Assembly: GCF_964204645.1 (NCBI RefSeq)
Contig: NC_134025.1
Location: forward strand, 13,461,001 to 13,525,000
Length of the DNA stretch: 64,000 nt
Direction: 5' to 3'
From: Tubulanus polymorphus
Taxonomy: Eukaryota; Nemertea; Palaeonemertea; Tubulaniformes; Tubulanidae
Shown here: positions 6,199 to 42,451 of the stretch, piece after piece
How the letters are laid out: every line of letters starts with the position of its first letter
How positions within the stretch are numbered: position 1 is the stretch's first letter
Position numbers and translations under genes: made by a program
The notes under the pieces: model-generated
Told to the model about the DNA's origin: nothing
The model's database searches: none
Seen by the model: the letters and a program-made list of their open reading frames with translations, nothing else

Positions 6199-6771
6199 GT
6201 AAACGTACAAAAATGGCCAGGAAAATATGGCCAAGGAAAAAAAGGCCAGGGAAAATTTATCAAAATTATTAACTACCATTCCATATGCTATATGCAAACT
6301 ACAAAATCAAATGCATTAAACTCTTGACATGTCACTTTTTTGGATTATTAAATGAATTCCTGAATTAGTATACCCTTAGTTTACTGAATTAGGTTTACAA
6401 GCAAATTGATCTGCTATATAAATTATCACACAATCTAAATACATTAATTGTATTATCCTTTGGTGATATAAGACAATAGTTTATATCCTAATTGCTTACT
6501 TTGATGTTGCTTACTTTGATATCAGTATATGTATTTTAATTGTTTAAACTAGACAACATGCCTCGTGAAAAACAAGTCATGCCATTATATGTATTTCAAC
6601 TGTTTAAACTATATACTATGCAAAATGCCTCATGAAAAATAATGTCATGGAATTGAAAGCTAAATGTTGTTATTAACATCGCCAGAAGTTAAGTTTAATC
6701 TCAAATTCTATCAAATTTTCCCCGGCCTTTTTCTTACTTGGCCATATTCCTTGGCCATTTTCCTACAATCC
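6199..6771. mobile_element. Iteron-TIR transposon, family F (GGCC core), 573 bp
   Basis: The left end is an array of 15-bp units: GTACAAAAATGGCCA, GGAAAATATGGCCAA, GGAAAAAAAGGCCAG, GGAAAATTT. The right end read in reverse gives the same order: GTAGGAAAATGGCCA, AGGAATATGGCCAA, GTAAGAAAAAGGCCG, GGGAAAATTT. The flanks (G/A)TAAATGTA at 6190-6198 and 6772-6780 look like a 9-bp target duplication with one mismatch. The exact terminus is uncertain by 1-2 bases. The interior is AT-rich and has a diverged direct duplication of about 65 bp (6525-6650, TTTAAACTA...ATGCCTC(G/A)TGAAAAA). No coding capacity is seen. Confidence 0.75.
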
Positions 6772-6784
6772 ATAAATGTATAAA

Positions 6785-9078
6785 GAATATGATTTCTCAT
6801 AAAACAGATTGATCTCATTCATTCCGAATGATCTGAATTGAGCGGGTTCAACCTATCATATCAAAGATCTAGAAGGGGTGGTTACTCCTATGAAATTTCA
6901 TAAGTGCGCTTTTTGAGCAACAGTAATCACACACTTAAGTCACTGAAATTGTTTCCATTCTATGATAGTTTATGCTGATCAAGTTATTCTTTCAATACGT
7001 GCATTCCTCATATTTCAGTATTGAATTAAACAGTGTTACTGGATCTCAGAATCACTCTACAATTCAAAATTACATTTATCTGTGTGTGTTTTACTGAGTC
7101 AAAGTACTCGCTGTCCAAGGGAGATCAGCGAGCAGTTGCCTTATTGCGTAATTCAATACCATTTCCATAAAACATGAAGGCTTCATCCTTTCGTCATGCA
7201 AAGAACAGACTACCGACAACCACAGATTGTTTTTGTGAATCATACGTGTATCATATATCTGGTAAAAAGATGAATCGTGAATCATGATAACATCCTTGTC
7301 AAATCAAATATTTAAACATATACACTTTACTGAACACGAAACTAAAACTTGCCACCCCCATGAATATCTTAAGATTTGAATCGTTTTTACAAAATTATCA
7401 TACCTGAAATACAGTGTGTTGCTCTGTTCAGCAAATCTATGTCAATAGTAAGCGATTCTTTCAAAATCAACATCAACAACTACGGATATTAGACTTCATA
7501 GAGTACACATAGCAAACTCAGTAGCCAGATGTTCTGACCATGGTACTAAACAATAGAAATATCATAACAATTGATTTCTTTATTAAGTTACGCAGTTGAC
7601 GTGCCATCACATATGGATTCTAGTACTAGTTTTAAGCTGATGTCCATGCGTTGCAGCAAGGATGAATCGAATATAGTGACGTCCTTGCCACAACAGTAAG
7701 ACTTGTATCCTATCGAGCTACCAATAACCTTGAAGTAATTATCTTGTCAAGATGATAACTCCAAGCAATAACCATCAATATCGATAAGTGATAAAAGGTC
7801 AGCAGTTTATAGCTACATATTGTATGTGTAAGTGTATATATTGTAATTCGATAACCAGAAGCCGTCCAACTTTTTAATTGTCAAACACGCCATGCAGCTT
7901 ATCATCAGTTCATAAAAGCGGCGTTCACACAAGATTCTTGGAAGAATGCCGTGCTGACAGAGAAATTTGCATTCACAAGTGATTCAGCGGTTAGTAATGC
8001 TAAGCTTTAGTTATGCCGATTCGGGGGTATTTTCAAGATGGCATTTTCTTGCTATCTCTATTTCCTGTACTTTCAATCCATTCTTAATCTTGTATTTTCA
8101 ATCTATTCTTAATCTGCTCTACTGCCAATGCTCTACTTATGAATGGTAATTAAATTGTCAATTTGGCACACAACTACAATTAAGTTCCTTGCTTAAAGCA
8201 AGCAAAATACTTTTTTCACCATATAGCCTATTGTAAAAAGTGAGTTTACACATTGCCTATATATATATTTCTTCTTGTTAGTGGCTTCTCGTGTTAAAAA
8301 TGGGAATAAAAACGATTAAAAACTTTGATGTGCATGAGTGAAAGGCAATCATCCCCCTTGTTGAGTTGAGTGTACTACAATACATGGCTTTCTAAGAGCC
8401 TAATCTGCATTTACACTACAAAGAATGGCAAACTCAGCACTGTATCGAGATTCTCGAATTTTGAATCATTTTCTGCGCTTACTAAACCCATGTGCCTATT
8501 TCATTACAGCTTATTCTTACTTTCTTCTTACCCCCGCCAAATTTGACCTCCACTTCACTATTTTGGCAAATTCGCCAAAATGGAATTCCTTGTCTTAGCA
8601 TACCAATTTGGATTTTCAATGTTTTTCTATTTTTTCATTTCATGAGTTTACGTTATGGCCTGAATCAGCCAAAATACATCTAACATTCTTATATGAAATA
8701 TAAATGCTCGACTTAAAATACATTCACAGTTATAGGCCAATTTACATTTTTGAATCGCCACCAGTCAGCCATCTTGAATGCAATTACTCTAAAATCAAAA
8801 AATCTTCATGCCAGCAGGCCTATACATCTAACCCATTATTTCGTTCCTGGCAGGGGTGGTGGGTGTGTAAATCAAACAAAATCTACTAACAAAATAACAG
8901 GGTCAATCCCTATGGTGGCTCATTCATTTTTTTTCTAGTTTTGTCATAATTTCGCCCTCATTTGCACCCTCATGTATTCACGCATGTCCCTTAACAGCCA
9001 CCATACTATTTTAAGATTTAAAAAAAAGTGAATATTTTAGGATTTCATCACAATTGCTTTCTGAGTTGTCAATGTAAG
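6785..9078. other. No gene or element recognised
   Basis: Mostly AT-rich unique sequence. GCGGCGTTCACACAAG at about 7918-7933 resembles one end of the AGCNGCRTTCAC elements found elsewhere, but no partner end was found. A CAGTCAGCCATCTTGAATG motif near 8762 recalls the inner part of family B. Open frames of about 60 codons here have no recognisable features. Confidence 0.4.
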
Positions 9079-9079
9079 A

Positions 9080-9150
9080 GTCAAAACCATACAGTCATTA
9101 CACTGTACAGTCAAATCCATATAGTCATTATACTGTACAGTCAAATCCAT
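9080..9150. repeat. 30-bp tandem duplication
   Basis: Two 30-bp units at 9091-9120 and 9121-9150 differ at two bases (core AGTCATTA(C/T)ACTGTACAGTC). A partial unit precedes them. Confidence 0.9.
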
Positions 9151-9154
9151 AATA

Positions 9155-11045
9155 CTGGAATCCCACCCCTGATTTCATCCAGGGATATGATTAGCATATA
9201 CCAAACGGGTGTCTATTTTGCTCAAACAAGTAGCTGCAAAATACCCTTTCAGAATATTCTCAAACTACTCAGTATCCAAGATTTAACCAACCAATCTGGA
9301 TACAAAACCCAAGCAATTCATGTTAGCTGTTGTGTGATCAGAAAAATCGCTTGTTTGTGTATGCACCGGGTAAAAGTCATCGCTACTTGTCTGGAGCTCA
9401 GAGTCAATAGGTGTTTTTTGCATGATCGACAGTGAAATTGCAGTGACTCTTTGCTTGTCTGCCATTTAATCCAAATACGACTGATTTAACAATTAGTCAC
9501 AAGTGACTTAAAATCCCATGTCGCAGCAAAACTATTATCATCAAAATTGTTAGCTCCCAATGTCAATGGAGGAAATCTTCTTTTCTGAAGACATATAAAC
9601 TTCAATGATTTGAAAAAAAAACGTGAGCTTTTTAATGTATTTTCGGATCATACTACGTAATCCAATATTAAGTAAAGGCCTATGCTTCCACATTTGAACT
9701 TATTCAAGACAAATATCTGCAGTTGATAATAAGATAGATAAATTCTGGGTTTGAATTTAGTTTCAGAGATTTGGCAAATTTCATCCTTTCCAAACAGATC
9801 ATGAAAGCTACTCTTGACTCCCCGGCAGTTTGGTTAAGTATGGGAGATTAGGGGAGATTGGGATCTCTTAGTAAAGTCACAACTAGTGTATTGCTGTCAA
9901 AAAACACTCAAGATACCCTGGCCATAGCAATCATTCCTGGGAAAATCTGTACTTGTGCTTGTTTTCAATCACTTCATAAGTTGAAATGGTGAACTTGTTA
10001 TTTCATACTCGAGGGGAATGTCTACATTTGAAATTATCTGAATAAGTCTGCTTTTACTTACTTTTTTGACTTTCACATAGATGACTTCTTATATAGCAGT
10101 CTTGATTTGATTTTACAGCAACGTCTTTTAACCTGAAAGTAAAAATACATGAAATACATGTAATTAGGAATTCATTGATTGATTGCAAAACACCAATGCA
10201 AGTGAATGCAATTACTTGCTCAACAGTCCGATCAACAAATGTTACTAACATTGTTGTTCTACATGATGAAAGAACATTTAGGAACAAAGGTTTTGTAATG
10301 AGTGAAAAACAAATATATAGATTCAACAATTTTTCAGGTATTGATCAACTGATGACCTGAAAGCTACAATCAGTTCTGCCTCGGCTAATACCAGTGGTTT
10401 CAACAGGTCATTTAACTCTACCCTAAAATATGTCATTTGCCATACGTTTTTAGAGTATAGAAGAAACAATGCCTTACTCAGTAGCATTGAGACCATAACA
10501 AGAGGCCAAATAATTTACCAAAAACATTTTAGTAAATTTCGGTGATTTGAAGGGTTAACTGAGGTGAATGATACCGAGTAAGGTAGATTCTACAGTTTTC
10601 AGTTATTATGCTTCTGAATTCCAAGAAAATCCAAGGCGAAATTAATTCTAGGCTTAACTCTAGAACTGTCTGTGGTATTGATATTTTGACATTATCTAAT
10701 GTGGTAGCCTCAAGTCAGTCATATCTCAAAAGGATTCACATATTATAAGTTTTCAACACAACATAACTTTTTCATCAACTATAAATCCTAATAAATTGCC
10801 CACAGGCAAAGTTACTTTGAAAACTGGAGCTTGTTTGGCCAGTGCCTATGAAAAATCCTTTTAATTCAAAGTTCTATTTTATATTGTATTTCATCTTTCA
10901 TATTTTGTAGTCAGATAAGGCCAAAAATATACATTTGTTTATAGTCCATGTCCAAAATTTGGTAGGGTACAGGAAGGTAGGGGAATTTTTTATATTTTGA
11001 AAGAATATTTTTCACATTATGAACAATATTTAGATAAAATTGATT
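9155..11045. other. No gene or element recognised
   Basis: AT-rich unique sequence. Open frames of 60-90 codons overlap each other on opposite strands at 10054-10360 and show no motifs. Confidence 0.4.
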
Positions 11046-11052
11046 TGATATG

Positions 11053-11068
11053 ACCAATCAAAGGGCGG
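11053..11068 (+). promoter_or_regulatory. CCAAT box next to a GC box (possible core promoter)
   Basis: ACCAATCAAAGGGCGG places a CCAAT motif 5 bases before a GGGCGG motif in otherwise AT-rich DNA. It lies about 50 bases before a possible first coding exon. The combination is typical of animal promoters without a TATA box, but it could be chance. Confidence 0.2.
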
Positions 11069-11120
11069 CTGAATATTGAATGCCTTGGCAACCTCTTCCA
11101 ATGTAGCTGATGAAGCTAAC

Positions 11121-11148
11121 ATGCCGGCACCGCAAAAAATTGGCGTAT
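11121..11148 (+). CDS. Possible first coding exon (MPAPQKIGV...)
   Basis: An ATG at 11121 opens nine codons reading MPAPQKIGV and runs into a consensus 5' splice site, GTAAGT, at 11149-11154. An alternative donor, GTATGT, lies at 11145. A CCAAT/GC-box pair sits about 50 bases upstream. The same frame is open back to 11073, so an internal exon is also conceivable. No downstream partner exon could be recognised and the product is unknown. With only 28 bases this is a weak call made from context. Confidence 0.18.
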
Positions 11149-11460
11149 GTAAGTGGATCGTTGTAAACCCCGGATTTTACGACTAAAATATTGACCTCGA
11201 CTTATACACTGAGCGAAATGATAGTTTGCTGCTTAGTATTTTCAGGTCACAAGAAATTCTACCAAACAGAAAACGCAGTTCTCATCTTCCGCTATAATAG
11301 TTTAAATGATTATTCATGATAAATTATAATTACTTTATCAAAAAAAAAAAAAAACTTTTATTTGAACGCCACTTGAAACATTGCATTCATACACGCATTA
11401 GCAATGTAGGCCAATACAATACTGTGCGAGCGTGTGAGCGTGTGTGCGCACGCATGTGCG

Positions 11461-11555
11461 GCTTTCCCAGAATTTCGTCAGTTGCACCAGAATTCTCAGA
11501 ATTTCCTGTATATCCCAAAAACAGCCAATCACATTTGCTTGTAGAGATCATGGTG
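11461..11555. repeat. Dispersed repeat T, copy 1
   Basis: GAATTTCCTGTATATCCCA followed by AACAGCCAATCACATT recurs at 35661-35765 with few differences. The wider stretch also shares GCTTTCCC and GAATTTC motifs. It is a fragment of an unidentified interspersed repeat. Confidence 0.6.
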
Positions 11556-11559
11556 CGCT

Positions 11560-13655
11560 GTGTAGTAAGCATGTTTCAGGGGCGTTGGAGGCAATTTTGA
11601 ATGCTGCGGTCAATTGCTGATTTTTGACTGGTACTCAGATGTTGCGGTGAATTTACTTCAATTTCATAAAAAATATGGTATTCAAAGAAAGAGACGTCAT
11701 TCAGTAAATTATTGCCGCCGCTGCAGTCCTTGCACTTCCTACGTCAATGTGTTCAACGCAATAATGGGTTTTCACTATGACTCACTAGCAGATGACAGAA
11801 CAATCGATGTTCTTGTTAAGGATGTCACTGGGAAAGCCCTGTGATGTCATCATCAAGTAACAAGGTCCAGCAACGATCAGTTGAATGGGAAATAATTCAT
11901 TGAAGTTTTGCTCATTTTCTCCCAATGCTTCCAAACGGCTGAGCTTATGGACAAAACTTGCCATATCAATTCCAACACCTATTTCCCTCCTCATGATAAA
12001 ATATCAGCTGTTTATATACAGTGGTTACAATTTGAGCCACCAAGAGCTAACAGAAAGTTACTCTCAGGACCATTTTTGTAAGAATCAACACAGTTGATCC
12101 TAAAGAAACTGATGCGCGGAATATTGCTAAAAGCAGCCTCATAAATACAACAATATGGGGGGTCACAGCTGGTTTCATACCATGCAGTCAATCGAAATGA
12201 CAGACTTAGTGAATAAAAGGTTTTTGCAAATTGCAACTACTTATGAAGTATCGGATAAATAGTATTGGAGTGTACAAAAAGATATTGTCACTTATGAACA
12301 TTAGCTTAAGTGCTCAGGTGGATCTAATCGTTATGGTGGCTGATTCAGGCCATACTAAAAAATTTTTCTGTAGAACTAAAGCAACGATAAAAAAGTTTTC
12401 ACATTGGCCCGTTTTTTGGTTTTCTCGTGCGAGAATTCAAAACCATATACATTATCAATGATGAAGTTTTTGAACTATAAAAAACAAAAAATATGTGTTA
12501 AAAATTTCATAAAATAAAGATAACCAATATAACCAAGTTAACTGTCTCCTGAGATTGAGATAATAATAACCAATATAGGTAACCAAGTTTGCTGGCTCCT
12601 GTGATTATTCATTTCTTATATGCAAGACCAATCAGATTCCACCTATCAATTTTTATCTATTGCTGGATGCTACGGTTACTGAGCCACCATCTTGAATCCT
12701 TGCTTGCCAAATTAACTAAACAAAAATAGTGTTGTATTCAAAATATTGTATTAGCCTATGATGTACATCAACATTGTTATCAGTGTCTAGAGCGACAAAA
12801 TATTTTACCTATAGATTTATCTCTAAAATCAAATAAATAATTGAATGGTTAATCATTTACTTCGTATTACTTTATACATACCAGTTATATGCCACTCAGT
12901 ACTAATGCAGGGTTATTTCCACATTTAATGCAGGGTTATTGCCATATATTCTTGGTCAAGCGATGTAAAATGAGTGAACTGAGTGATGGAACCCATCGGT
13001 CAACACAAGGTTGATACTTTGTGCTGAAGCTGGCAAGTGAGGCGGTTGAAGTGACAGTAACATGCATTAGTGTGTAATGCATAATGAGGTGAAATCCATA
13101 ACCTCATTCTATATCAGCATGTAGCTGATCCCAAGCATTAAAAGTTCACCAAATCATCAGGTAGAGGATAATCTCAGTCATTTTAATTGAAGCGCAGTTT
13201 ACTAGGGGGTTTGTGGGTATCACAGCAACATATAGTGATTACATATGCATAATTAATGGCTGCTGATATGTCTCTGATGTAACATGACCTCCCTGATCTT
13301 CTCTGTCTACCGATGATTCCCAGTGCATAAATGACCTTCATTAATGGCACCTGTACCGAGATCAACTGACTGTTGTTATTACTAGTGAAAATATGGATTA
13401 CCCATGCTGATTGATTATCCTCACAGAGATGTGGCTCTCGTTAATTGACTGGACTGGCAAACGCCTGAGGATGAATGGATGAACTGCAGATATCAAAAGT
13501 GCATTAAAGAACCCGACAATATCTCACCGGGAATTATCTAACAACCACAGTTGATGCTTCTCATCTCGTCATCGATACCTTTATGTAGGGAGGTGGATGC
13601 ACTTGGTTTATGACCACTGCTTACTTGAAGAAGGTTCATGATTTAAGTTCATGTG
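11560..13655. other. No gene recognised; small tandem duplications
   Basis: Two diverged units of about 52 bp lie at 12517-12610 (ATAACCAATATA...ACCAAGTT...CTCCTG(A/T)GATT). A 23-bp direct duplication (AATGCAGGGTTATT) lies at 12903-12945. A short stem AATGAGGT/ACCTCATT lies at 13083-13107. Nothing else stands out. Confidence 0.5.
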
Positions 13656-13668
13656 TTGAAAATACTGT

Positions 13669-14077
13669 GATGAATTTAGGTAAAAATTCCCTCAAATTGA
13701 ATTTCATGACAAAATTTATCAATACTCTCACGTTGATTAAGAAAAATTAAGATGGGTTTTTGCAATTTTAATCTTACTACTGAATTAACTCAAGATGTTA
13801 GTTATCCCCTCAATTACATGTATACCAAAATACTGTAGTGAAAATTATTGGCGAGGGCTTTCTCCAAAAATATATGGCTATGAGGAATATGAATACCTTA
13901 TACCACGATGAGAAGTTGAGGAATGAGCTGAATTCAGTTCTGTATATACTTAATAATAAAAATCGAGAAATTAAAGGTCAAACTTTGAAAAAATTTCTTA
14001 ATTGTAAATTGCAGAGAGCAAAAATGGAATTAGGGGGCATATTTACAAAAACTGAATTAGGGGGAATTTAAACAAAT
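13669..14077. mobile_element. Possible iteron-type TIR element, family G (weak)
   Basis: The left side reads GAATTTAGGTAAAAATTCCC, which fits the 7-base plus GGTAAAAAT terminus of families A, C and E. The right side read in reverse shows GTTTAAATTCCCCCTAATTC and a second unit with ATGCCCCCTAATTCC. The flanks show no convincing 9-bp duplication. It could be a decayed relative or a single end with chance partners. Confidence 0.3.
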
Positions 14078-14079
14078 GA

Positions 14080-15580
14080 GAAAACAGCAAATAAGAAAGG
14101 AACATTTTTTAAATACAAAAACAATCGCATCTGCTTACATTCCCATGATTGTGATGAAATGTTCATCCACAAATCATCATAAAATCAATCAAGCAGAAAG
14201 AAGAGCCTTTAATGATGTGAACACCTCAGATCAACACAAGTTTTTCAGTGCTTCAAAAAGTGTGAAACATAAACAAAAAACTTCAGTCAACATCCAAGCA
14301 TGTGTCAGCACACTGTAGAATAATAAGACTGTCAAACGCCCAAGACAAAGCAGTTTCTAATGAGGCATAATAGACATAACTGTAATCACGGCATCAGCTT
14401 GGAATAATCAAAGTAACATTTTTCAGCAGCATTACCCATATTCATCGAGGTCTCAATTAAGAATCAAGATTATTTCATGTACAGGCGTTGTTATTGCAAC
14501 ATAATTATTAGCATTTTCATTATAATGCAATTTTAGATAAAATGAAAGTATTTCATGAGATTCCACGCAACTGAACAATCAATCATTTTAGGTGAAAATA
14601 TGCGCGCACACTAACTGTCTATAAACGATATGCATGATAAACTGAGATTCTATTGTTTTATAGCTAAGTTGGCACCGAGAATTATCATTTCGCAAAAGAT
14701 TTCTGCACGAACTAGAGACTCCATGCTCTCTCCATTGTCAGTCTAGCATATAATTGCAGGTGCAGGTTGAAAAATTGCAGCTGCCATTTAAAAACGGTAA
14801 ATAAAACAAAATAACCAATAAACAAATCGAGAAAAACCAAGCAATCTAGGAAGTTCGGTAGAGACTTCTAAAATTCCATGGTCTTTGAACAAATCTTAAT
14901 TACATCAAAAAGCGTCACATGGCAGCTAACCCTGATTTATTGCCCAAACAAGAAAGCTGTTGAAAATGATAATCATTCATCATTTTCAGAGAAACCTAAG
15001 AAAATGACATAAGTAATTTCTTATGTACTGTAGACGGCACATCCATATTGATTGAAAACTTTGAATATTCAAAATTTTCAATTCACCACAATTGGAAAAT
15101 CATAGATCAATAAATGTGATTGAATTGATTTACAAGTGATGATTATTCGACTATCAATAATCAACTATTTTCGACACCGCAACATCACAAGGCTCCTCAA
15201 AAACATTGGAAAAGATGAATAAAGATGCACCAAAAACATCTGTCAACCAAATCATCACCCGTCAAATCAACCACATACGGACGTTCGTCTAACAAACATC
15301 AAAACAAAGGTACATTTTTTATATGACCATGCCACTTGACACTGGAGAAACTGCCTGAACTGGTTTTCATCCCTTCTATGTTTCTCAATTCGAAATCAAT
15401 TTACCAGCATCCTACTTTTATGTAAATATGTGTGGCAAGGCAGGGTAAATAAGATGCATGTTTGATGCAAACAATCCCCACCATCAACTAGAATGTCGCT
15501 GAAGACGACTGATGCCCAGACATCAGGTGAAACGCGAGTGTAAAATACACTGCAAGCGTATGTCGACCTATTTATGAAGG
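14080..15580. other. No gene or element recognised
   Basis: AT-rich unique sequence. An 80-codon frame (14076-14318, +) lies here without recognisable features. Confidence 0.4.
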
Positions 15581-15582
15581 GA

Positions 15583-18207: not shown

Positions 18208-19106
18208 GGTTAGCGGTAAAAATCCCCAATTCTTCAAAGGAGGTAAAATTCCCCTCCTTCTGAATGTAGTGTAAGTAGATACAATCTTAAGGTCAATTAA
18301 TTCATAATATTGATACATATATCCAATTTATTATTGTGGAACGTCATAAGGATATCATGAGTATACAAACTTTAGTATATACTATTTGAAATAAAACATA
18401 CTACAGACCAATACAAAACTACAGACCAATTGTCCTTGATTCTAGCGAATGATCACATTATTAATCACGTCTGTAAGTTTGTAAATGAGGCGTCCATTCT
18501 GCGTAATGCACCGCCATAATGCATTTAACCAACAGAACTTTTTGTCTTGTAATCCTATATAGGCTGGCTTTTATTTATGTATAAAAGATGACAATAAACT
18601 AATTATATATATACTACAAATTAACAGTTCATTAATACTAAATTAGTACTTAAAGTTATCAAAAAGCTTAATGAAAAGGTTCATCGCACATTTCAAATAC
18701 ATTAAAATATCTAGAATTAAAAGTTCATTATCGCTTATAACTCATGGTATTTCAGTGCCCAAATATACCACGAGTCAACAAGAGACTGTTCAAAAATATT
18801 CCAGTTCGAATTTTAAGATATTATAAATAAAAAGTTCATTATTCTTATTAGTTCTAACAATCTTTTTATTCTAAAAGTTTACGCAGAGATTGCTTTTTAA
18901 TTGTTCTAACAATTTACTTTATTCTAAAAGAATTTATCCCAACAAAAGATTCCATTGCGCAGTGCAAACACATTTCAGTCTCATCGCAAATGAACAAAAT
19001 TTGAGAAACATTTTGCTTTGAAATGTTCTTGAAAATCACTGAGTGGGGATTTTTACCTACTTTGAATAATTGGGGATTCTTACCTAGGGGATTTTTACCT
19101 ACAACC
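18208..19106. mobile_element. Iteron-TIR transposon, family C (CCCC core), copy 1, 899 bp
   Basis: The left end is GGTTAGC + GGTAAAAATCCCC, with a second iteron GGTAAAATTCCCC. The right end in reverse is GGTTGTA + GGTAAAAATCCCCTA, GGTAAGAATCCCC..., GGTAAAAATCCCC. The possible 9-bp target repeat (TCCAACCAT left, TCGAACATG right) is imperfect. Copy 2 at 36430-37096 shares the ends and much of the interior, for example TGAATGTAGTGTAAGTAG, AGAATTTATCCCAA and CATTTTGCTTTGAAATG. The interior is AT-rich with no coding capacity. Copy 1 is longer, mainly by extra AT-rich sequence. Confidence 0.8.
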
Positions 19107-31959: not shown

Positions 31960-32440
31960 ATGGTTAAAATTGCAATGTTTCTAATGAAAAAAAATAAATT
32001 TAGCTTAACTTTGACAATGTCTTTGAACAGATTTCATGGACCCTTCAATGTTTACACATATCTTATGCAGTCATCACAACAGGCCCTGGATTATATACAC
32101 CTCACATTGCTTTGTGGGAACAAGCATAATGAGGACTGCAAGTTTTAAGCAAAGGAGAAAGAAAACAAATTTCTCTAAGGCATTTGTCTTGATGACCTCT
32201 CTGGATTTAGAAGTGCAATGTCATTAGTTGATTCCCACACCAGCGTCGCATCACGTAAAGTTTGATGAAGATAATCTAATTATATACTGTTAATGGTTAA
32301 TGGACTGAAGCCTATGGGAGCAGTCAAGGGAATTCATGGTTTACTTGAGAGGAATAACTGAAGTAGATATAATTAATGCTGTTCTATATGCAGTGATATT
32401 CCTATATCAACCATTTCATACAGCCTAATCCGACAACAGG
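31960..32440. other. No feature recognised
   Basis: Unique sequence; an 87-codon frame at 31885-32148 begins inside element O and is not believed. Confidence 0.35.
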
Positions 32441-32449
32441 CCTGTATCC

Positions 32450-33015: not shown

Positions 33016-33019
33016 TGTA

Positions 33020-34430
33020 TCAACACATCTGTCTTTCGTGGCTTTGATAGTTCACCAAACTATGTACTACCAACTGATTCGAATCTATTGCATATATACC
33101 ATTATACACGTAGTTTGAAAATAAAAACTACGGTTAAATTCTTTGAATGCAGCCAGGTGAGTGATTTTTATTTTCTAATGAAATACAATATTAACATTTG
33201 TCAGGTTTTACTTTCTTGCTTCATAGTGTATTGTATTGAACTTTTAACACAGGACTTCCAAGGATGAGAAACAAGGTTTCTTCTTATCGTTACATATGGG
33301 TGAAGGTGCCATCAACGACGGGCAAGTAATGTTGAATAACTTCAATCATAGTAGTCATCAGTGGCTATAAGTGGTGATAGTATTGCCATTAAAATGGCAA
33401 AATAGATCTTAAATTACCACAAAATAAATCCATATGAAGCATCAAATTGGATGAATCTTGAGGCATAATCATCATAGATAGCATTCTGTCAGATTTATCA
33501 TTTCATAAATATTGGAAGGTAAACCTCATCTAAAAGCAATCATGATTTTAACTGGCCTCAAATCCGAGCATTCAAAATACCACTAACTCAAATCACTACT
33601 CAAATCGGAAAAGGCAAATCTCAATTTCATTGGACATGCGGAAAAAATATTTTGAAATGATATAAGACTTAAGACTAATATAAGACTTAAAAAGAATTTT
33701 TGAGTATTCAAAAGAATAAAGACATTAGACTACAATTACCGTAAACCTGTATATCAAATTACGGTAGAGCTTAGAATTAACTTTGCGCAACGTTTGCGTG
33801 TTGAAAGCGCCGCGTTCTCGTTAATGGTTTCAATTGAAACGCGTTGTACATGCGATTTGAACACGTTTTAAAGCCGATACAACGATGTACGGTACACATT
33901 CAATTTATTTCCAAAACGCCTATCATTTACCATTTTAAACATAAACGAAACGGCAAATAAACGTTAACGATGTTGATTTAATTGTAAGCTGTACGGTACA
34001 AGAGATGTACAATTTTTTCATTTTCTCAAATATTTGCGTACAGAGACACTTGCAATACCATTCATTTACTAAGTGTCGTGGACGATGATCACAAAAACGA
34101 TGAGGTGGAGGCATGAGAAACTACACTGGGAACCTATTACTATGCGAGATTAGTTTCTTGATTTTTTCATCTGATGATCTATTCAAACGTTACAAGAATT
34201 TGGTAACAGCAGTTTGGGAATAGCAGCAAGTCTTGGCAAACAAACTTTACAACGGTATTTACAATGAGACTTGAATTTTTATCCAACAACTCCTCAGTGA
34301 CAGGGGATTGGAATTGCTAGTTCTCTCACAGGGAATTGATTCAGTTTTCAATTCCAATATCATAGAATTTGTATTTCGTGTTCACAATAAGTTATTTCAA
34401 ACGGTTGAAATTAAGTCCATTCCAATTTAG
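33020..34430. other. No gene or element recognised
   Basis: AATTACCGTAA at 33736-33746 faces TTACGGTA at 33759-33766, and CpG-containing ACG/CGTT words are frequent from 33780 to 34010, unlike the flanks. No ends could be defined. Confidence 0.35.
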
Positions 34431-34442
34431 AATGGATTAAGC

Positions 34443-35050
34443 GAATCTAGGTAAAAATTTCCCGGGAAATAATGTCCCCGGAAAATGTGTCCCCGTAAAG
34501 AATGTCCCAGGGAAATATGTCCTACAAGGTAGAAAAAAATTGTCTCAGTCTATCATTACTAATTTAGTAAATTTCACATCAAAATAACACCAGAGAACAA
34601 ACTTGGTAATTGTGTTGAGAATTATAGACCTATTATATAAAAATTTTGGCATTAATTAATTTTGCCCATGAGAACATGTGAACTCATTACATGATATCAA
34701 AAATACATGTATTTTTGATGATATGTCAAATTTAAGAAGATTTTACTATTGAATTGAATGCGCAGTTGCTAAATTACACATCATTAATGGAGAAAATTAT
34801 GAAAAGTTAATGCACAGTTACTTCGATGAAGACGTCAAATTTAAGAAGATTTCAAATCTATAATACAAATAATTATATCAAAATAGAGCCATTATTTGTT
34901 ATGAAATTTTAAAATTGTAATGATAATGTATTACCAAATTTGGTCTCTGGTGTTATGATGATGTGAAATAAACTACATTACCAAGTTAGTAACGAAAGAC
35001 TGGGACATTTTTTCCGGGACATTTATTCGGGGACATTTTTACCGTATACG
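34443..35050. mobile_element. Foldback-like iteron transposon, family E (TCCC core), 608 bp
   Basis: GGATTAAGC at 34434-34442 and 35051-35059 is a perfect 9-bp target duplication. The left end is GAATCTA + five 15-bp units (GGTAAAAATTTCCCG, GGAAATAATGTCCCC, GGAAAATGTGTCCCC, GTAAAGAATGTCCCA, GGGAAATATGTCCTA). The right end in reverse is CGTATAC + GGTAAAAATGTCCCC and further TGTCCC units. Inverted similarity continues inward for about 150 bases on each side (CAGTCT, CACATCA, AACACCAGAGA, TTGGTAAT in both arms), giving a foldback structure. No coding capacity. Confidence 0.88.
34696..34719. repeat. Perfect 24-bp palindrome inside family E
   Basis: The sequence from ATCAAAAATACA to its mirror TGTATTTTTGAT is fully self-complementary without a loop. 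It lies in the left half of the element, outside the iteron arrays. Confidence 0.9.
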
Positions 35051-35059
35051 GGATTAAGC

Positions 35060-35655
35060 ACGGGCACTGATTAAACTCGCGTTAAACTGGTCAATTCCTA
35101 TGACAAAATAAAGGTCCAAGTGCCCTGTGGGTCACCATTAAATCATTGAGTGCATATATTGCCAAAATATTATACTAAATATGAATTAATTTGGATTAGA
35201 GATGTATGAGGCTGACAATATATGCTCCTGCGGATGTGTGAGAGTGCTGTGTATACTATAATTGCCTATATATAGACTCGCTCAGGTGATTACTAACACA
35301 CATACTGTAACCTATATTTGCACACACGCAGCTGACTGCTGACGCGCGTATATACAAATGTACTAGCAACGCATTACTAGAAGAATCCATCCATCGACAA
35401 AATGTCAAAAAATACAAACATATACACATACAGACTTTTTTTTCTAGAAATCAAAACAAATATCGGCTATGATTTTTTTCTTAAATATACAAATAAATAC
35501 CGACTTGGAAGACCCCTGCTATTGGTATCTTCGTACTTGCTAGTTCAGATACTGAATTAAACGGCCTACTCGCTTATATTCGTGACAACGAACAAATTAT
35601 AAGCAAACGTACGATACCTAGTCGAATAAAATACTCGCCATTTTGTTTTGGGTTT
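35060..35655. other. No feature recognised
   Basis: AT-rich unique sequence. Confidence 0.35.
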
Positions 35656-35660
35656 CACAT

Positions 35661-35765
35661 TAGGCTTTCCCAATGGGCTTTCCCGATGACATCGGAAACG
35701 CGAAATTCCCGGAATTTCCCGTATATCCCACAAACAGCCAATCACATTCATTGTAGCTCAGGTTA
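35661..35765. repeat. Dispersed repeat T, copy 2
   Basis: GAATTTCCCGTATATCCCA with AACAGCCAATCACATT matches 11490-11550. GGCTTTCCC occurs twice upstream. Confidence 0.6.
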
Positions 35766-35769
35766 CAAG

Positions 35770-36418
35770 GTCAACTCAAATAAATAGAAGCGAGGAAATT
35801 TAGGGGGTTTATAAAGTGAGGGGCTGTAGGTCGAAAAGTACATTGAGATCAGTCGAATTAAAAACCGCGACACTTCCAGGAAGGATTGAACTTTAATATA
35901 TTTCAATTCCAAGCATGCAAATTGTCATATGTAAAAACGTGCCATTACTTAGTGCTAAAAAGCGGGGTTTTTGCGTGTTTTTCAAGAATAAGTCCCCTAA
36001 AAATAACTCGATCACTATGAAATTTTTGTGGGCTCGAGAACTCACTAAGCCAAACCATGACACCAAAAATCAACACTATTGGTTCAACAGCCAATGTTAG
36101 AGCCTTGTTGACACACTGGTACTCTATTCATTTTCAATGAAAACTGCTTCATCAGACCGTTTGCATAGGCAAACCTACGGTTCGCCAAAAACCCATCCAG
36201 GTAAATTCTAAATCTTTCACTCAGTGTGAGTAAAAACTTTGCTTTGCATGTCATTCATTCACTTGTGTTTAGCCGATCCAGTGATAAAAATTTAGAGTAT
36301 ATTATTAAGTTAATATATAGTTATGATACTTGAATCTAGAAGATTTATTGCATTATTAGGCTGGCTGATTTGGTCACAAACAAAAGAAGCTTTTAGCAAA
36401 GCTGTAAATATTTGTATA
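35770..36418. other. No feature recognised
   Basis: Unique sequence leading to the target duplication of family C copy 2. Confidence 0.35.
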
Positions 36419-36429
36419 GCATGAATCAT

Positions 36430-37096
36430 GGTTAGCGGTAAAAATCCCCAATTCTTCAACATAGGTAAAAATCCCCCTCCTGAATGTAGTGTAAGTAGAT
36501 ACAATCTTAAGGTCAATTAATTCATATTATTGATAATTCATATTATTGTGGAACATACAAACCATAGTATATACTATTTGAATTAAAACATACTACAAAT
36601 TAGCAGTTCATTAATACTAGATTAGTACTTAAATTTATCACACAGCTTAATGAAAGGGTTCATCGCACTTATCAAATATATTACTCTAGCTTGAATCTAA
36701 AATATTTAGAATTAAAAGTTCATTATTGCTTATAATTCACGACATTGCACTGCTCAAATATACCACAAGTCAACAAGAGTTCACAGTTCAAAAATATTCC
36801 AGTTCGAATTTTAAGATATTACAAATAAAAAGTTCATTATTCGTGTTAATTCTAACAATTCAGTCTATTCTACTAAGAGTTTACTTAAAGAATTTATCCC
36901 AAAGAAAGATTCCATTGGGCAGTTCAAACACATTTCAGTCTCATTGCAAATGCACAAAATTGGAGAAACATTTTGCTTTGAAATGTTCTTGAAAATCACG
37001 GAGTGGGGATTTTTACCTACTTTGAATATTTGGGGATCTATACCTAGGGGGTTTTTACCCAGGGGATATTTACCTAGGCGATTTTTACCTGCAACC
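36430..37096. mobile_element. Iteron-TIR transposon, family C, copy 2, 667 bp
   Basis: The flanks ATGAATCAT (36421-36429) and ATGAATTAT (37097-37105) are a 9-bp target duplication with one change. The left end is GGTTAGC + GGTAAAAATCCCC. The right end in reverse is GGTTGCA + GGTAAAAATCGCCTA, GGTAAATATCCCCTG, GGTAAAAACCCCCTA, GGTATAGATCCCC..., GGTAAAAATCCCC, so it has more 15-bp iterons than copy 1. The interior matches copy 1 at 18208-19106. The 77-codon minus frame across the right array (36865-37098) is a by-product of the iterons. Confidence 0.9.
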
Positions 37097-37389
37097 ATGA
37101 ATTATTGCTCCTATTAAAATGCCGACTTCCACATGGCTAGAACTTACCAGGGTATTCCACTGAAGATTTTGTTATTAGCCCACTGTATCTAACACTGATA
37201 TAATAAGTCAGTGTTTTTGTTGATCTTGGCATGTCTACACGAAAACTTTGTATCCCAACCCTAAGGAAGATGACCAGATGGAAATAAATGAAACTTTTGT
37301 GACTGGAGATTCATTCTATTAGAAATATAGAAAATAGACTTTTATAGCTTCCTTGTTTTTGGCCAGATTTTCTTTAAATTTAGAGGGTC

Positions 37390-37568
37390 AGTTCAATCAT
37401 ATTTCCTTTGTAACAAAAAGTAGGTCCAATTATAAATGGAAATACTATGTTATTTCACCATTCAATACTGCCTGGTGAATGCATGCAGAAACAAATTGCC
37501 TTGAAAATCATTTCAATCATAGAACATCATGATCTTAAACTTTGCTTTTGATTGTGATTACAAAATAT
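37390..37568. repeat. Family B fragment serving as transposon landing site
   Basis: ACTATGTTATTTCACCATTC, GCCTGGTGA, CAATCATAGAAC and TTGATTGTGATTACAAAATAT follow one 150-bp internal unit of family B. The unit is cut by element A1 at 37569 and resumes after it (ACAAAATATATGCATGG). Confidence 0.65.
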
Positions 37569-38316
37569 GAATCCAGGTAATAATGTTAGAGGTAAAAATG
37601 CCATAGGAAAAATCAAACCATAGGTAAAATGCCAGAGGTAAAAATGCCAGAAGGAAATATGAGGAAAAATTAAGCGAAGAATTTATCAACAATGGACCTG
37701 ATATTCTTATTTACACTAGATTTTATGTAATGAATGCACAGTTTAGATATACTGTGCATAACATATTCCTATGATAATAAAAATTAAAAAAATTAATGAC
37801 AAATTTATCAAATAAAGAGAATCAAAAATTCATAGAATTAAGTCTGACATAAGCAAGAAATTCATTGAAATTATTGATATTCTTATTCGCACAAGATGAT
37901 ATTGAGATACAACATATTCTTAGATCATTGGAAATTAAAAAAAAATGCACATATTCTTATATAATTGAAATAAAAAAGCGAGCATAGTCATGATATATAA
38001 CACATTTCTAAATTAATGAATATTAACAAATGAATGTACTGAGTTTACATATTGAATGCACAGTTCAGATAAAGCATATTTCTAGGTATAATTATAGGTA
38101 TGATAATTAAAATCAAAAAGTTTTTGACAAGCTAGTTTGCTATAATTCATTACATCAAAGCAACAATTCGATGAAAAGTTTATAAGTTTTGATACACTTG
38201 TTGTTTATAATCATTGAATCAATTTACCCTTCCGGCACTTTTACTTCTGGCATTTTTATACCCCTGGCATTTTTACTTCTGGCATTATTACCTATATGGC
38301 ATTATTACCGTGTACC
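37569..38316. mobile_element. Iteron-TIR transposon, family A (GCC core), copy 1, 748 bp
   Basis: ACAAAATAT flanks both sides (37560-37568, 38317-38325), a perfect 9-bp target duplication. The left end is GAATCCA + units such as GGTAAAAATGCCATA and GGTAAAAATGCCAGA. The right end in reverse is GGTACAC + GGTAATAATGCCATA, GGTAATAATGCCAGA, AGTAAAAATGCCAGG and further units. Periods are 14-17, mostly 15. The interior closely matches copy 2. No open frame of note; it is non-autonomous. Confidence 0.92.
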
Positions 38317-38331
38317 ACAAAATATATGCAT

Positions 38332-38580
38332 GGATGTAGGTAAAAATTCCAACTTTTTCAAGAACATTTCAAAGCAAGATATTTCTCCAATATTCATTTG
38401 CGATAAAACTGCAATATATTTGGACTGTGCAATGAAGCTTTTAGTATTAATGAACTTTTTGTTCCTAATATTTCTAAATTCAAACTCTTCAAAAACAAAT
38501 TCAATGAACTTTTAATTTGAAATAAAAATTCAAACTGCATTTCATTTACTGTGTTATTAATTACTTAACTTTTTATAGAT
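38332..38580. mobile_element. Truncated family C copy (one end only)
   Basis: GGATGTA + GGTAAAAATTCC opens a stretch that matches the right half of family C read in reverse: TTCAAGAACATTTCAAAGCA, TTCATTTGCGAT, AATGAACTTTTTGTTCC. It begins 15 bases after element A1 ends. The opposite end was not found, so it is truncated or strongly decayed. A 108-codon open frame (38189-38515) runs across both elements and is spurious. Confidence 0.65.
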
Positions 38581-38589
38581 TTGAACCGC

Positions 38590-39325
38590 GCGATAAGTTA
38601 GAGCATTAGCAAACATATAATTTGAAATATAGTATTAACCACTGAAGAGTGTATGGAGCGGCGCCCTGAAGTAGGCCTATATAACATAACAATAAAACTA
38701 AGTTTGTTTGGTGATACTTGCCAATAATGAATAAAACGCTGCTTGCACACAAGTTCGTTATGATGTCCCTAAGATAATCATTAATATCCAATCACAAATA
38801 ACAAAATCATCAAGATTCAATGGAAAATCCATTGGTGTATATAGGCGAATCAATTCTCTCGTTAGACCTGCTCATCGATAGCTTATTATTCATCTGTGTA
38901 GAGGCAAACATTGACCTATGAATTATATCTTACGAAGCTAAGCAAGGATAGTCCATGTGTACTTGTGTGATGTTTCCTTTCAACATAATGCAGGCAAATG
39001 ACTTGTCTAAATAGATTTTAATCACTGGGATCGATAAAGTTCGGATCCTACCATTCAATATTGCTGGAAGCCATTACATGAGAAAGCTTAACTGAAAGGA
39101 TTGATTGTGATTGCCATGTACAATCCAAATCTCATATGCTTGTTTGAACAGGTATCTAATCAATATATTGAGAAACAATGAAATCAAACTAGGATACTGT
39201 TGATACTGAATTGTTAGGTGACTACAGGGCAGGAAACAGGTGTAGTCAAATATCATGGACACAAAAGAGTTTTTACAAGCATTCAATTTTTGCGATCGCT
39301 ATTGCCATTTGCACCAATAATGTAA
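38590..39325. other. No feature recognised
   Basis: AT-rich unique sequence. Confidence 0.35.
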
Positions 39326-39333
39326 ATGAAATC

Positions 39334-39530
39334 GAATGTTGGTAAAAATCCTGTCCCCCGCCCCCGGTAAGAATCCCACAGTTTTGAATATAGTTTTAAA
39401 ACTTATGATATGATATGATTTATTTTCAAGTAAGATTTTACAAAATTAATGAGTAAAGAAATACATTAAAGATGTAATGAAGTATTATCTGTTTTCATTT
39501 AGGTTTTATACTAAGTTTTTACCTACATTC
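39334..39530. mobile_element. Short iteron-type element D, 197 bp
   Basis: GAATGTT + GGTAAAAATCC at the left faces GAATGTA + GGTAAAAAC in reverse at the right. A second unit GGTAAGAATCCC lies at 39367. Pairing extends outward into AAATC/GATTT, so no 9-bp target duplication remains visible. It lies 21 bases before element A2. Confidence 0.6.
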
Positions 39531-39950
39531 GATTTATCAACTACCAGGCACGATTCCAGGTAATGATGCCAGAGGTAAAAATGCCATAGGTAATGATGCC
39601 AGAAGTTAAAGTGCCAGAGGGAAAAATGCCAGAAGGAAATATGAGGAAAATTAAGTGAAGAATTTTTTAACATCGGACCTGATATTCTTATTTACACTAG
39701 ATTTTACGTAATGAATGCACAGTTTAGATTTACATAACATATTCCTATGATAATAAAAATAAAAAAAGGAATGACAAACTTATGAAATAAAGAGATTCAC
39801 AAATTTATGAAATAAAGACTGGCACAAGCAAGAAATTCATTAAGACTATTGATATTCTTATTTGCATTAGATAATATTGAGATAAAACATATTTTTACAT
39901 CATTGGAAATTAAAAAATTAATGCACATATTCTTATATGATTGAAACAAA

Positions 39951-41171
39951 GAGCCCCAAGGGGCACTATGGCCAGCCTGTCAGCTTTTCATAAAATGGCA
40001 AATGATGCATTCTGTGGGTTTAATTTGTCCAAATACACTCCCAGCTCATAGACTAGTCAATCCCAGGCTAATAATTTACACAATTTAATCGTGTTTTCAT
40101 AAGTAGCACAGATAGCGACTGGAGCTGGCAGGAACAAATACCTCAGATAAATCTTTTCCCTTGGTCTTATTGATTTGAATGCGGAATAGAATTGAATTTT
40201 CTAAAATTTGCTCAATAAAATAAAATTGAATTGGATTTGCTGTTTCACCATGTTCAATACAGTAAAAATTGAATTGGATTTGATATAGTTTTTGCAGAAT
40301 AAAATTTGATTGCATTTGCAGAAAGAGCACATGGCTAATTAGCATTTCAAGGTCTTCCATCCGATTCGAGAAAAAGCTATTTTTCCCGGACATTGCACAA
40401 TTGTCAATTATATTTCTGTAGTGCAAATAAAAATATTCCTCCTAAAAACCAAATCAACTAAAGATTTCACAGAAATCGATATTGAAATACAATTTACGAC
40501 TTAAAATAAAACCCAGAAGTAAAACGGTAGACGATACCGCGGGTTCACATGAACACCTGCTGATCTCTGCGGTTAAGCCCAGAGATGAGAACGTCAACCT
40601 ATAAAATCTGCAGTTTTTTTCTTGAGTTACACACACAAACCAGCTGATGGCGTAGCCGCCAGCACTCGCGAGCGCCGAAGGCGCGAAGCCATTTAGGGGG
40701 GTTTCTCCCCCAAGAAAATTTTAGATATTAATAGATAATAGATAATTTAGATAATAATTTCTGAGCACTTAAGGCAATCTTGAACCCATGAACAACTATT
40801 ATATTTTGGAAGGTAATGGCTATTTCCAATATAGCACATCCTCATTCGATGACATTCAAAATTTTTCAATACCGAAATCCGCGGGAAATTCTCATCTCTG
40901 TAAGCCAATCATAGAGGAGTCTTTGCTTTCTGATTGGCTTTTTAAAACAGATATTTTTGCGATCAGATTTTCGCGAAAAAGCTCATATAAATTCTAACGA
41001 GGCCCTCTTTCAAAATTCAGCTTCATGGGGGTTGGATAATGGATAATGCTCTAATGAATGATTTGTATGAATATATGCTCAATTGCACAGTCAAAGAGCC
41101 TTTACTCTGGAAACTATGTCATTTAAATTCGCTCCATTTGTATAGTAATAGGCTCAGCCTATGGCTGGCCT
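39951..41171. mobile_element. Dispersed repeat Z, copy 1, inserted in A2
   Basis: Copy 1 of family A reads straight through the site (TTGAAATAAAAAAGCGAGC), while A2 is interrupted here. The insert starts AGCCCCAAGGGGCACTATGG and ends CTATGGCTGGCCT; GGCCAGCC occurs inverted near both ends. Its body matches 49985-50552 (GACTGGAGCTGGCAG, TACCTCAGATAAATC, ACGATACCGCGGGTTCAC, ACACCTGCTGAT, GATTTTCGCGAAAAAGCTC). It carries a private tandem AAAATTGAATTGGATTTG pair near 40207-40285 and a nested hAT-like element. Confidence 0.8.
40580..40900. mobile_element. hAT-like MITE, 321 bp, proven by empty site
   Basis: CAGAGATGAGAA at the left end and its exact inverse TTCTCATCTCTG at the right form a 12-bp TIR. 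TAAGCC flanks both sides (40574-40579, 40901-40906). The other copy of repeat Z has the uninterrupted site GGTTAAGCCAATCATAGAGG at about 50311-50330, so insertion with a 6-bp duplication is shown directly. Inside lies a GC-rich part with GCCGCCAGC, CGCCGAAGGCGCGAAGCC and a GGGGGG/CCCCC hairpin (40695-40711). CAG...CTG ends and a 6-bp duplication fit a hAT subgroup. Confidence 0.85.
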
Positions 41172-41275
41172 AATAAAAAAGCGAACATAGTTAGGATTTA
41201 GAATATATAATGTCATGAAGGTAAAAATGGCTTAAAGGTATTTGGAAGCAGTTTTAATAAATCTGGAGAGTTGTT

Positions 41276-42120
41276 TCAGTTGTTTCCCTTTATTTTCATC
41301 AGTTGGGTAAATTTGTGCACACTTGCCCTAGTTCTGAAAAATGGTTTTAAGAATTTAGTGTGGATGTTTCGGAAATAAGGGCATCTAATGACATGGTGGA
41401 ATTCTTCCCCGACATCTTCAGTGTCGCAGAGACTACAAATTCTTTCCTCCCTGGGGATTCGATTGTATCTTCGAGTTTCTAATGGTAGTTTATGATTTGA
41501 GCACCAAAAATGGCAAAAAATGATTCTTAAATCCAATGGCAGTGTGGTGAGACAATCTTCAAAGCCCCATTCACTTTTGAAATGTCTATGGTATAAAGCT
41601 GTGTTAGAGTTGTTTAGGGAGTCGTGCCAAAGTTGTATATACTGATCTGTTAAAATATTTGGGTCAGGGGTATTCTGTTTATACCATATTTCACCCATTC
41701 CGTTGGTTTCTAGCACATTTCTTATGAAATCAAGCCATTTACTAGTGTTTCTATCAATTAAACGACGGAGTAGAGTATTATAAATATACAATGATAATTT
41801 GTTAACAGGTTTCTCCAAAAATTTAGCATTCTACTTTTAATAGTAATGGAAAGAGGGAACCGTCCTATTTCACCATAAACAAAAAAGCTTGGTAAGCTTG
41901 GTGTTGACCTTTTTAATTTGAGTAGGTACTTGAAAAAAGTTAATTCTACTCTCTCTAGTCGGTTCTGATTTAGAAATCCCCAAATTTCAAAGCCAAAAGT
42001 TAAAACGGGAACCACCATGCTCTCAAAGAGTTGGAGTGCTAGGTCTATTCCTAGTGAATATTCCTGAACCTTTTTCAATACGAAAAACATGGCTTTTTTG
42101 CATGAGTTTCTAGTGAATCA
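41276..42120 (-). pseudogene. 5'-truncated LINE ORF2 tail (reverse transcriptase C-terminal part)
   Basis: Read from 42120 downward, RNSCKKAMFFVLKKVQEYSL, then SMVVPVLTFGFEIWG and YGEIGRFPLSITIKSRMLNFW are classic sequence from just after the RT domain of non-LTR retrotransposons. At about 41820 the frame shifts. The second frame (41276-41818, 180 residues) continues with the C-terminal region, including IWYKQNTPDPNIL and a zinc-knuckle-like CSLC...HHVIRC (C128, C131, H141, C146 of that frame), and ends in a normal stop. The RT catalytic part, endonuclease and ORF1 are absent. With 5' truncation and a frameshift it is inactive. It is inserted in element A2; the 3' flank runs to about 41215 without a clear poly(A). 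Confidence 0.85.
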
Positions 42121-42451
42121 ATACATAGGGATAAACTACCATTATAACGGAGAAAGATGAATGCACAGACTTTACATATTGAATGCACAGTTCAGATAAA
42201 GCATATTTCTAGGTATAATGATAGGTATGATAATAAAATCCAAAAGTTTTTGACAAGTTAGTTTGCTGTAATTCATAACATCAAAGCAACAATTCGATGA
42301 ATAGTTTTTAGCTTTTGATATGCTTGTTTCTTATAATCATTGAATCAATTTACCCTTCTCACATAATTTCCTCTGGCATTTTTACCTCTGGCATTTTTAC
42401 ACCCCTGGCATTTTTACTTCTGGCATCATTACCGCGTGCCACCAGGCACTG

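What the first reader, a model, noticed from the sequence alone, without database searches (positions are those of the whole stretch)
6199..42440. A transposon group defined by 15-bp terminal iterons and 9-bp target duplications
Families A, C, E and F differ in sequence but share one design. Each end has about 7 variable bases, then an array of 15-bp units usually opening GGTAAAAAT, in the same register. The unit core changes between families: TGCCA (A), TCCCC (C), TGTCCC (E), TGGCC (F). Target duplications are 9 bp: perfect for A1 (ACAAAATAT), A2 (ACCAGGCAC) and E (GGATTAAGC), 8 of 9 for C2 (ATGAATCAT/ATGAATTAT), about 9 for F. No fixed terminal bases typical of hAT, Harbinger, Tc1 or piggyBac are present. 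9-bp duplication is typical of Mutator-like elements, and arrayed TIRs recall foldback elements. The pattern suggests transposases that read a 15-bp-spaced array whose word evolves while spacing is kept. I do not recognise it as a named group.
Basis: partly seen in the sequence, partly recalled or inferred. Interest (0 to 1): 0.82.

Follow-up and report, generated by a model that had tools for sequence, protein, structure and literature searches.

The report
Mutator transposons with 15-bp arrayed ends
In a ribbon-worm genome, several families of jumping genes have ends built from a 15-base word repeated at fixed spacing and duplicate 9 bases of target DNA; they prove to be relatives of a known animal branch of the Mutator transposons, so the design is not new, although it shows well how the word changes while the spacing is kept.

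Summary
The window's six elements (A1, A2, C1, C2, E, F) have inverted ends made of units spaced about 15 bp. Their 9-bp target duplications (TSDs) are perfect for A1, A2 and E, 8 of 9 for C2 and F, and decayed for C1. In the host genome (Tubulanus polymorphus, Nemertea) 22 of 50 end pairs, chosen without looking at the flanks, have a 9-bp TSD with at most one mismatch (18 of 46 outside the window). The "7 variable bases" are in fact family-specific and asymmetric: one end GAATGTA- or GGTTGTA-like, the other GGTNNRC-like. One kind of transposase (FLYWCH zinc finger plus MULE DDE domain) was found inside or beside the ends of families A, C, D, E, F and G, mostly as decayed remnants, and in two further 15-bp families, H and J. 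These are Mutator elements of Phantom/Muta type with foldback-like ends. The same design is published: Tm1 of root-knot nematodes and Muta1/Muta5 of Aedes. They are new families of a known kind. The point worth keeping is a pitch near 15 bp held under changing words, across two transposase lineages here and, from the literature, in three phyla.

The parts
6198..6770 (.). Element F, non-autonomous; ends AGTAAAC / GATTGTA followed by arrays of GGAAAAAATGGCCAA-like units
   Evidence: 20 relatives fetched
6189..6197 (+). TSD of F, left (CGTAAATGT)
6771..6779 (+). TSD of F, right (CATAAATGT; 8 of 9)
18208..19106 (.). Element C1; ends GGTTAGC / GGTTGTA, units GGTAAAAATCCCCTA; TSD decayed
34434..34442 (+). 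TSD of E, left (GGATTAAGC)
34443..35050 (.). Element E, non-autonomous; ends GAATCTA / CGTATAC, units of the GGAAAAAATGTCCCC type
   Evidence: relatives
35051..35059 (+). TSD of E, right (GGATTAAGC)
36421..36429 (+). TSD of C2, left (ATGAATCAT)
36430..37096 (.). Element C2; ends GGTTAGC / GGTTGCA, units GGTAAAAATCCCCTA
37097..37105 (+). TSD of C2, right (ATGAATTAT; 8 of 9)
37560..37568 (+). TSD of A1, left (ACAAAATAT)
37569..38316 (.). Element A1, non-autonomous; ends GAATCCA / GGTACAC, units GGTAAAAATGCCAGA
   Evidence: relatives
38317..38325 (+). TSD of A1, right (ACAAAATAT)
39543..39551 (+). TSD of A2, left (ACCAGGCAC)
39552..42440 (.). Element A2 (2889 bp), an A copy lengthened by inserted DNA in its middle; ends GATTCCA / GGCACGC
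42441..42449 (+). TSD of A2, right (ACCAGGCAC)

Best explanation
The elements are short non-autonomous members of several related families of Mutator-superfamily (MULE) DNA transposons of the Phantom/Muta type. Shown: 9-bp duplications, paired asymmetric 7-bp tips, arrays with a pitch of about 15 bp, and a FLYWCH-MULE transposase within or beside the ends of the families. Inferred: the FLYWCH finger of each family's transposase binds its own 15-bp word many times along both arrays; multimers pair the two ends; the DDE domain cuts at the 7-bp tips and inserts with a 9-bp stagger, which host repair turns into the duplication. The short copies in the window would be moved in trans by transposase made by longer copies.
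For: TSD: 101 loci scanned (30 MULE flank loci and 4 overlapping duplicates left out), 50 gave a testable end pair; with one pair per locus chosen by end match alone, a 9-bp TSD with at most 1 mismatch in 22 of 50 (11 exact), against 0.0004 when flanks are mispaired; outside the window 18 of 46; by left-end family A 7 of 17, C 5 of 12, D 3 of 5, E 3 of 7, F 3 of 7, G 1 of 2. Tips: 48 of 50 pairs join one end of each type. Transposase: FLYWCH 36-46 bits (cut-off 23.6) in the G, H and E reading frames; MULE 39.8 (H), 33.4 (J), 38.2 (K) bits, cut-off 27.6. Position: family G, three copies 98.7-99.7% alike, L043 with perfect TSD ATAGCGCCA and the gene inside; D, L007 with perfect TSD CCAGAAGAA and L131 with 8 of 9, both with remnants inside; A, remnant inside both ends of L058; C and E, remnants beside one end; F, FLYWCH remnant inside F sequence in L107. 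Catalysis: D189, D256, C278xxH281, W378, E396 invariant in the 4 proteins aligned, at spacings close to those of the active Muta1 (D214, D283, H307, W401, E419; PMC5225508 passages). Pitch: 15 bp is the commonest spacing in 8 of 8 families.
Against: 28 of 50 blind pairs show no 9-bp TSD with at most 1 mismatch. Most fetched copies hold no transposase trace at E 1e-4 or better: 1 of 20 A loci (L044-L063), 0 of 20 E loci (L064-L083), 1 of 20 F loci (L091-L110), 0 of 20 C loci (L111-L130), and the window itself none. For C, E and F only one end was found beside the remnant; L058 (A) has no TSD; H and J have no detectable TSD. In the N-terminal tree F's remnant falls near insect proteins with weak support (81/51), not with C, D, E. 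The MULE part of family G alone scores 26.1 bits, below the 27.6 cut-off, because an intron-like break splits it. Binding of the units by FLYWCH is untested.
Confidence: 0.92

Rival explanations
1. Foldback elements of the P-element superfamily (Galileo-like, THAP finger) with arrayed ends.
For: Galileo has long, internally repetitive ends, and its THAP domain binds several sites in them (abstract of PMC3688188).
Against: The genes found inside these ends are FLYWCH plus MULE. TSDs are 9 bp; 7-bp duplications with at most 1 mismatch occur in 0 of 50 pairs. No search for P-element transposases was made.
Confidence: 0.02
2. The arrays arose independently in unrelated transposons and look alike only because short tandem arrays grow easily at transposon ends.
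For: Two transposase lineages here, G-H-J and A-C-D(-E), are separated in the trees by proteins of other animals. Tm1's authors argue that foldback-like ends evolved repeatedly (PMC3169594 passages).
Against: Same 9-bp TSD and pitch in both lineages, the same two kinds of 7-bp tip (GAAT..., GGT...) in A, D, E, F and G, and homologous transposases. Independent growth within this one superfamily stays possible.
Confidence: 0.25
3. The transposase remnants are unrelated insertions that happened to land in or beside these elements.
For: Only 1 of 20 A loci and 1 of 20 F loci hold a remnant, and for C, E and F just one end was seen beside it.
Against: Remnants from A, C and D form one clade with 100/99 support and C, D, E group at 93/83, which chance insertion would not give; G and D copies have the gene inside ends with perfect TSDs.
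Confidence: 0.05

Closest known systems
Tm1 (Meloidogyne; Phantom subclass of Mutator; PMC3169594, passages seen)
   Same: 9-bp TSD; asymmetric 7-bp tips outside the inverted repeat, one kind at each end; variable number of 13-15 bp (mostly 14) tandem units; FLYWCH plus MULE transposase; many short non-autonomous copies.
   Different: Pitch mostly 14 rather than 15 bp, other word and tip sequences, an extra purine-rich inner motif; no direct sequence comparison could be made here.
Muta1 and Muta5 (Aedes aegypti; PMC5225508, passages seen)
   Same: 8-9 bp TSD; Muta1 has a 10-bp tip plus nine 12-bp units with 3-4 bp spacers (15-16 bp pitch); Muta5 an 8-bp tip plus nine 15-bp units; FLYWCH in 13 of 14 families; DDE, CxxH and W at like spacings; many families in one genome, 10 of 12 long-ended ones with 9-15 bp tandem repeats.
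   Different: Other words; Muta1 moves in yeast, whereas nothing is known of activity here.
Phantom family of MULEs (group 20 of PMC6446971, passages seen; founding paper Marquez and Pritham 2010 not held)
   Same: Animal hosts, TSD 8-10 bp, FLYWCH in some members, ends 18-613 bp; that paper places the Muta elements in this family.
Sea-urchin TU and Drosophila FB foldback elements (recalled; library searches found no paper on TU)
   Same: Inverted ends with short tandem units; I recall a 15-bp unit for TU.
   Different: From memory only; not tested.

Membership tests
Mutator superfamily (MULE) | Transposase with a MULE DDE domain (PF10551) | tested here: met
   56 PF10551 matches in the genome; domain in the H, J and K frames over the cut-off, in G just below it because the frame is split; remnants inside or beside ends of A, C, D, E, F, G
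Mutator superfamily (MULE) | TSD of 8-11 bp | tested here: met
   9 bp with at most 1 mismatch in 22 of 50 blind pairs; 8 bp in 2 and 10 bp in 2 of 50
Phantom/Muta-type MULE | N-terminal FLYWCH zinc finger together with the MULE domain | tested here: met
   L085 (H) carries both in one frame; FLYWCH in the G and E frames and, by similarity, in the D (L131) and F (L107) remnants. For A and C only the C-terminal part was seen
Phantom/Muta-type MULE | Catalytic D, D, E with CxxH and W at Muta1-like spacing | tested here: met
   D189, D256, C278, H281, W378, E396 invariant in the 4 proteins; also readable in the G frames; compared with Muta1 positions
Phantom/Muta-type MULE | Transposase falls in the Phantom clade with Muta, Tm1 and insect Phantom sequences | not tested
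   Muta1, Tm1 and reference Phantom sequences were not identified in the two capped protein lists; aphid proteins with FLYWCH and MULE are relatives
Tm1/Muta-type foldback ends | Short tip followed by tandem units of about 12-15 bp in both inverted ends | tested here: met
   7-bp tips and 15-bp modal pitch in 8 of 8 families
P-element superfamily (Galileo) | 7-bp TSD and THAP-finger transposase | tested here: not met
   7-bp TSD in 0 of 50 pairs; gene found is FLYWCH-MULE
hAT | 8-bp TSD | tested here: not met
   8-bp TSD in 2 of 50 pairs against 22 of 50 for 9 bp

The most novel reading that the evidence does not exclude
The pitch of about 15 bp is a structural ruler of the FLYWCH-MULE transposase multimer, kept across phyla and across transposase lineages, while the 15-bp word and the finger that reads it change together; the asymmetric 7-bp tips tell the left end from the right. 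If so, the word-finger pairs of families A to J are a natural code table for FLYWCH fingers.
Probability: 0.25. Interest if true: 0.55.

Novelty: new member of a known kind. Interest (0 to 1): 0.34.

Why it matters
It extends the Tm1/Muta type of end to Nemertea and shows, within one genome, eight families with the same pitch but different words. Families with known transposase and known word would allow a direct test of how FLYWCH fingers read DNA and whether a multimer sets the spacing. For annotators it gives fixed tip motifs and a TSD length by which these elements can be found.

Tried and rejected
A scan of viral contigs for relatives of the transposase matched 112 stretches but confirmed none. 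No tRNA genes were found in the window. L018 and L030 were first taken as transposase genes inside C-type ends (noted); on reading, L018 has a C-type element merely next to a RING-finger MULE, and in L030/L087 the C-type array lies outside the H element. In L039 the transposase was first assigned to the surrounding C ends; comparison of three copies showed it belongs to a separate family, G, with its own ends. In the kept list, the L039 pair 446-4419 joins ends of two different families and is a chance pairing. An attempt to find ends and TSDs for families K (L088, L132) and N (L134) found none, and for J found arrays but no TSD. A genome-wide count of all spacings between exact words was asked for five times and never answered. 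Structure prediction was not used. The two trees used 29 and 21 reference proteins picked by me from the 186 returned; the group II transposase (L017) and the RING type (L018) were left out of both.
Full report
What was checked. The window is C1:13461001-13525000 of a 267.8-Mb eukaryotic assembly. Two NCBI proteins of Tubulanus polymorphus, which match a transposase found here, lie on contigs of 23,044,209 and 32,063,560 bases, the lengths of C6 and C1, so the host is this palaeonemertean (lineage).

Window anatomy. Six elements with inverted arrays lie at 6198-6770 (F), 18208-19106 (C1), 34443-35050 (E), 36430-37096 (C2), 37569-38316 (A1) and 39552-42440 (A2). TSDs are perfect for A1, A2 and E, 8 of 9 for C2 and F, and decayed for C1. 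Two exact-spaced words with up to 3 mismatches occur 16 times in the window, 0.26 expected. A period scan from 11 to 20 finds only period-15 arrays, four of them, apart from one low-complexity tract. No transposase similarity was found in the window at E 1e-4.

Genome-wide test of TSD length. A, E and F copies were taken by DNA similarity and C/D copies by the word pattern, without regard to the flanks. Of 101 loci scanned, 50 gave a testable pair of ends. Taking one pair per locus by end match alone, exact or one-mismatch duplications were seen at 9 bp in 22 of 50 (11 exact), at 8 bp in 2, at 10 bp in 2, at 5 bp in 3, at 4 bp in 1, and at 6, 7, 11, 12 and 13 bp in 0; mispaired flanks gave 0.0004 at 9 bp. 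Outside the window it is 18 of 46, 8 exact. The end models were built from the same families, so the count of tips is not independent of them, but the flanks played no part.

The tips. In 48 of the 50 pairs one end is of the GAATNNA/GGTTGTA kind and the other of the GGTNNRC kind; the exceptions are L096 and L120. Family tips are A GAATCCA/GGTACGC, C GGTTGTA/GGTTAGC, D GAATGTA/GGTAACA, E GAATGTA/GGTATAC, F GAATGTA/GGTGAAC, G GAATCCC/GGTGTAC. The first kind with its word has 190 exact matches in the genome, 1 for the reversed control.

The words and the pitch. Units line up as A GGTAAAAATGCCAGA, C GGTAAAAATCCCCTA, D GGTAAAAATCCCCCC, E GGAAAAAATGTCCCC, F GGAAAAAATGGCCAA, G GTCAAAATCCCATAG, H GACATTTAGTCTTCT, J GGACAAAACTTCTCC. 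Fifteen is the commonest spacing in 8 of 8 families: A 115 of 141, C 47 of 54, D 14 of 31, E 34 of 66, F 71 of 96, G 19 of 32, H 13 of 19, J 3 of 4 of the spacings between 10 and 20 bp, in the loci given to (22, 15, 5, 22, 21, 3, 3 and 1). The search used a core word with up to 2 mismatches. A genome-wide count of spacings did not complete.

The transposase. PF10551 (MULE) gave 56 matches in the genome. Family G exists in three copies 98.7-99.7% alike over 3.4 kb; the copy in L043 has a perfect 9-bp TSD and carries a FLYWCH domain (39.7 bits) and a MULE domain split by an intron-like gap. Family H (L085) carries both domains in one frame. Similarity searches with these and related proteins found remnants inside both ends of D (L007, perfect TSD; L131, 8 of 9) and A (L058, no TSD), beside one end of C (L001 and L041, which are duplicates of each other) and E (L034), and within F sequence (L107). 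By contrast 19 of 20 A, 20 of 20 E, 19 of 20 F and 20 of 20 C loci fetched as copies hold none: they are non-autonomous. The catalytic residues D, D, E with CxxH and W are invariant in the four proteins aligned and sit at nearly the same distances as in Muta1, where their mutation stops transposition (PMC5225508 passages).

Relationships. With 29 reference proteins, A, C and D form a clade (100/99) and G, H, J with three further Tubulanus transposases another (100/97), the two being separated by proteins of aphids, fireflies, crustaceans, molluscs and a sea urchin. With N-terminal parts and 21 references, C, D and E group (93/83; D-E 99/92), G-H-J-K-M-N again (99/98), and F is not placed (81/51 near insects). 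So the design is shared by two lineages that split before these animals' proteins did, or arose twice within the family. Relatives with FLYWCH and MULE occur in many animals (276 and 236 proteins passing, 120 listed each).

Comparison with print. Tm1 has 9-bp TSDs, asymmetric 7-bp tips, and 13-15 bp units, mostly 14 (PMC3169594 passages). Muta1 has a 10-bp tip and nine 12-bp units with 3-4 bp spacers, Muta5 an 8-bp tip and nine 15-bp units; 10 of 12 long-ended Aedes families have 9-15 bp tandem repeats and 13 of 14 have FLYWCH (PMC5225508 passages). A survey puts Muta within Phantom (PMC6446971 passages). A 2026 survey of arthropod MULEs suggests that long ends give several cooperative transposase sites (PMC13359780 passages), and Galileo, of another superfamily, has several footprinted or inferred sites in its arrays (PMC3688188 abstract). 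A search for nemertean Mutator papers returned 2 papers on other topics. I conclude: new families of a known kind.

Mechanism. Shown: TSD length, tips, arrays, gene inside. Inferred: FLYWCH reads the unit, many copies bind per end, ends pair, cleavage at the tips, 9-bp staggered insertion, mobilisation of short copies in trans. Why the pitch stays near 15 bp while the word changes is open; a spacing set by neighbouring transposase molecules is the reading I would test first.

Noticed in passing
window 41276-42117 (- strand): Inside A2 lie two overlapping stop-free frames (184 and 119 aa) that read like the C-terminal part of a LINE reverse transcriptase (RIPREERICSLCDTEDVGEEFHH..., recognised from memory, no search made).
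   Followed up: partly
window 39951-41171: A second stretch of A2, without counterpart in A1, is another insertion of unknown kind.
   Followed up: no
window 39334-39530: Two inverted ends of the same tip kind (GAATGTT/GAATGTA + GGTAAAAA) 197 bp apart, an exception to the rule of one tip of each kind; no matching TSD seen.
   Followed up: no
window 13672-13691 and 38332-38351: Solo ends GAATTTAGGTAAAAATTCCC and GGATGTAGGTAAAAATTCCA without an obvious partner; the second starts 16 bases after A1 ends.
   Followed up: no
L039, L042, L043: Three family G copies are 98.7-99.7% identical, which suggests recent movement.
   Followed up: partly
L009, L010, L011: Three near-identical MULE genes of another type (471-aa frames, no FLYWCH-type similarity to the group seen) on C5 and C12: another recently active MULE lineage.
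   Followed up: no
L018 1093-2595: A MULE frame followed by a RING-finger-like stretch (CVICLTEPRERVALVPCGHMLFC, recognised by eye), recalling the RING domain reported for Ghost MULEs of aphids (PMC6446971 passage).
   Followed up: no
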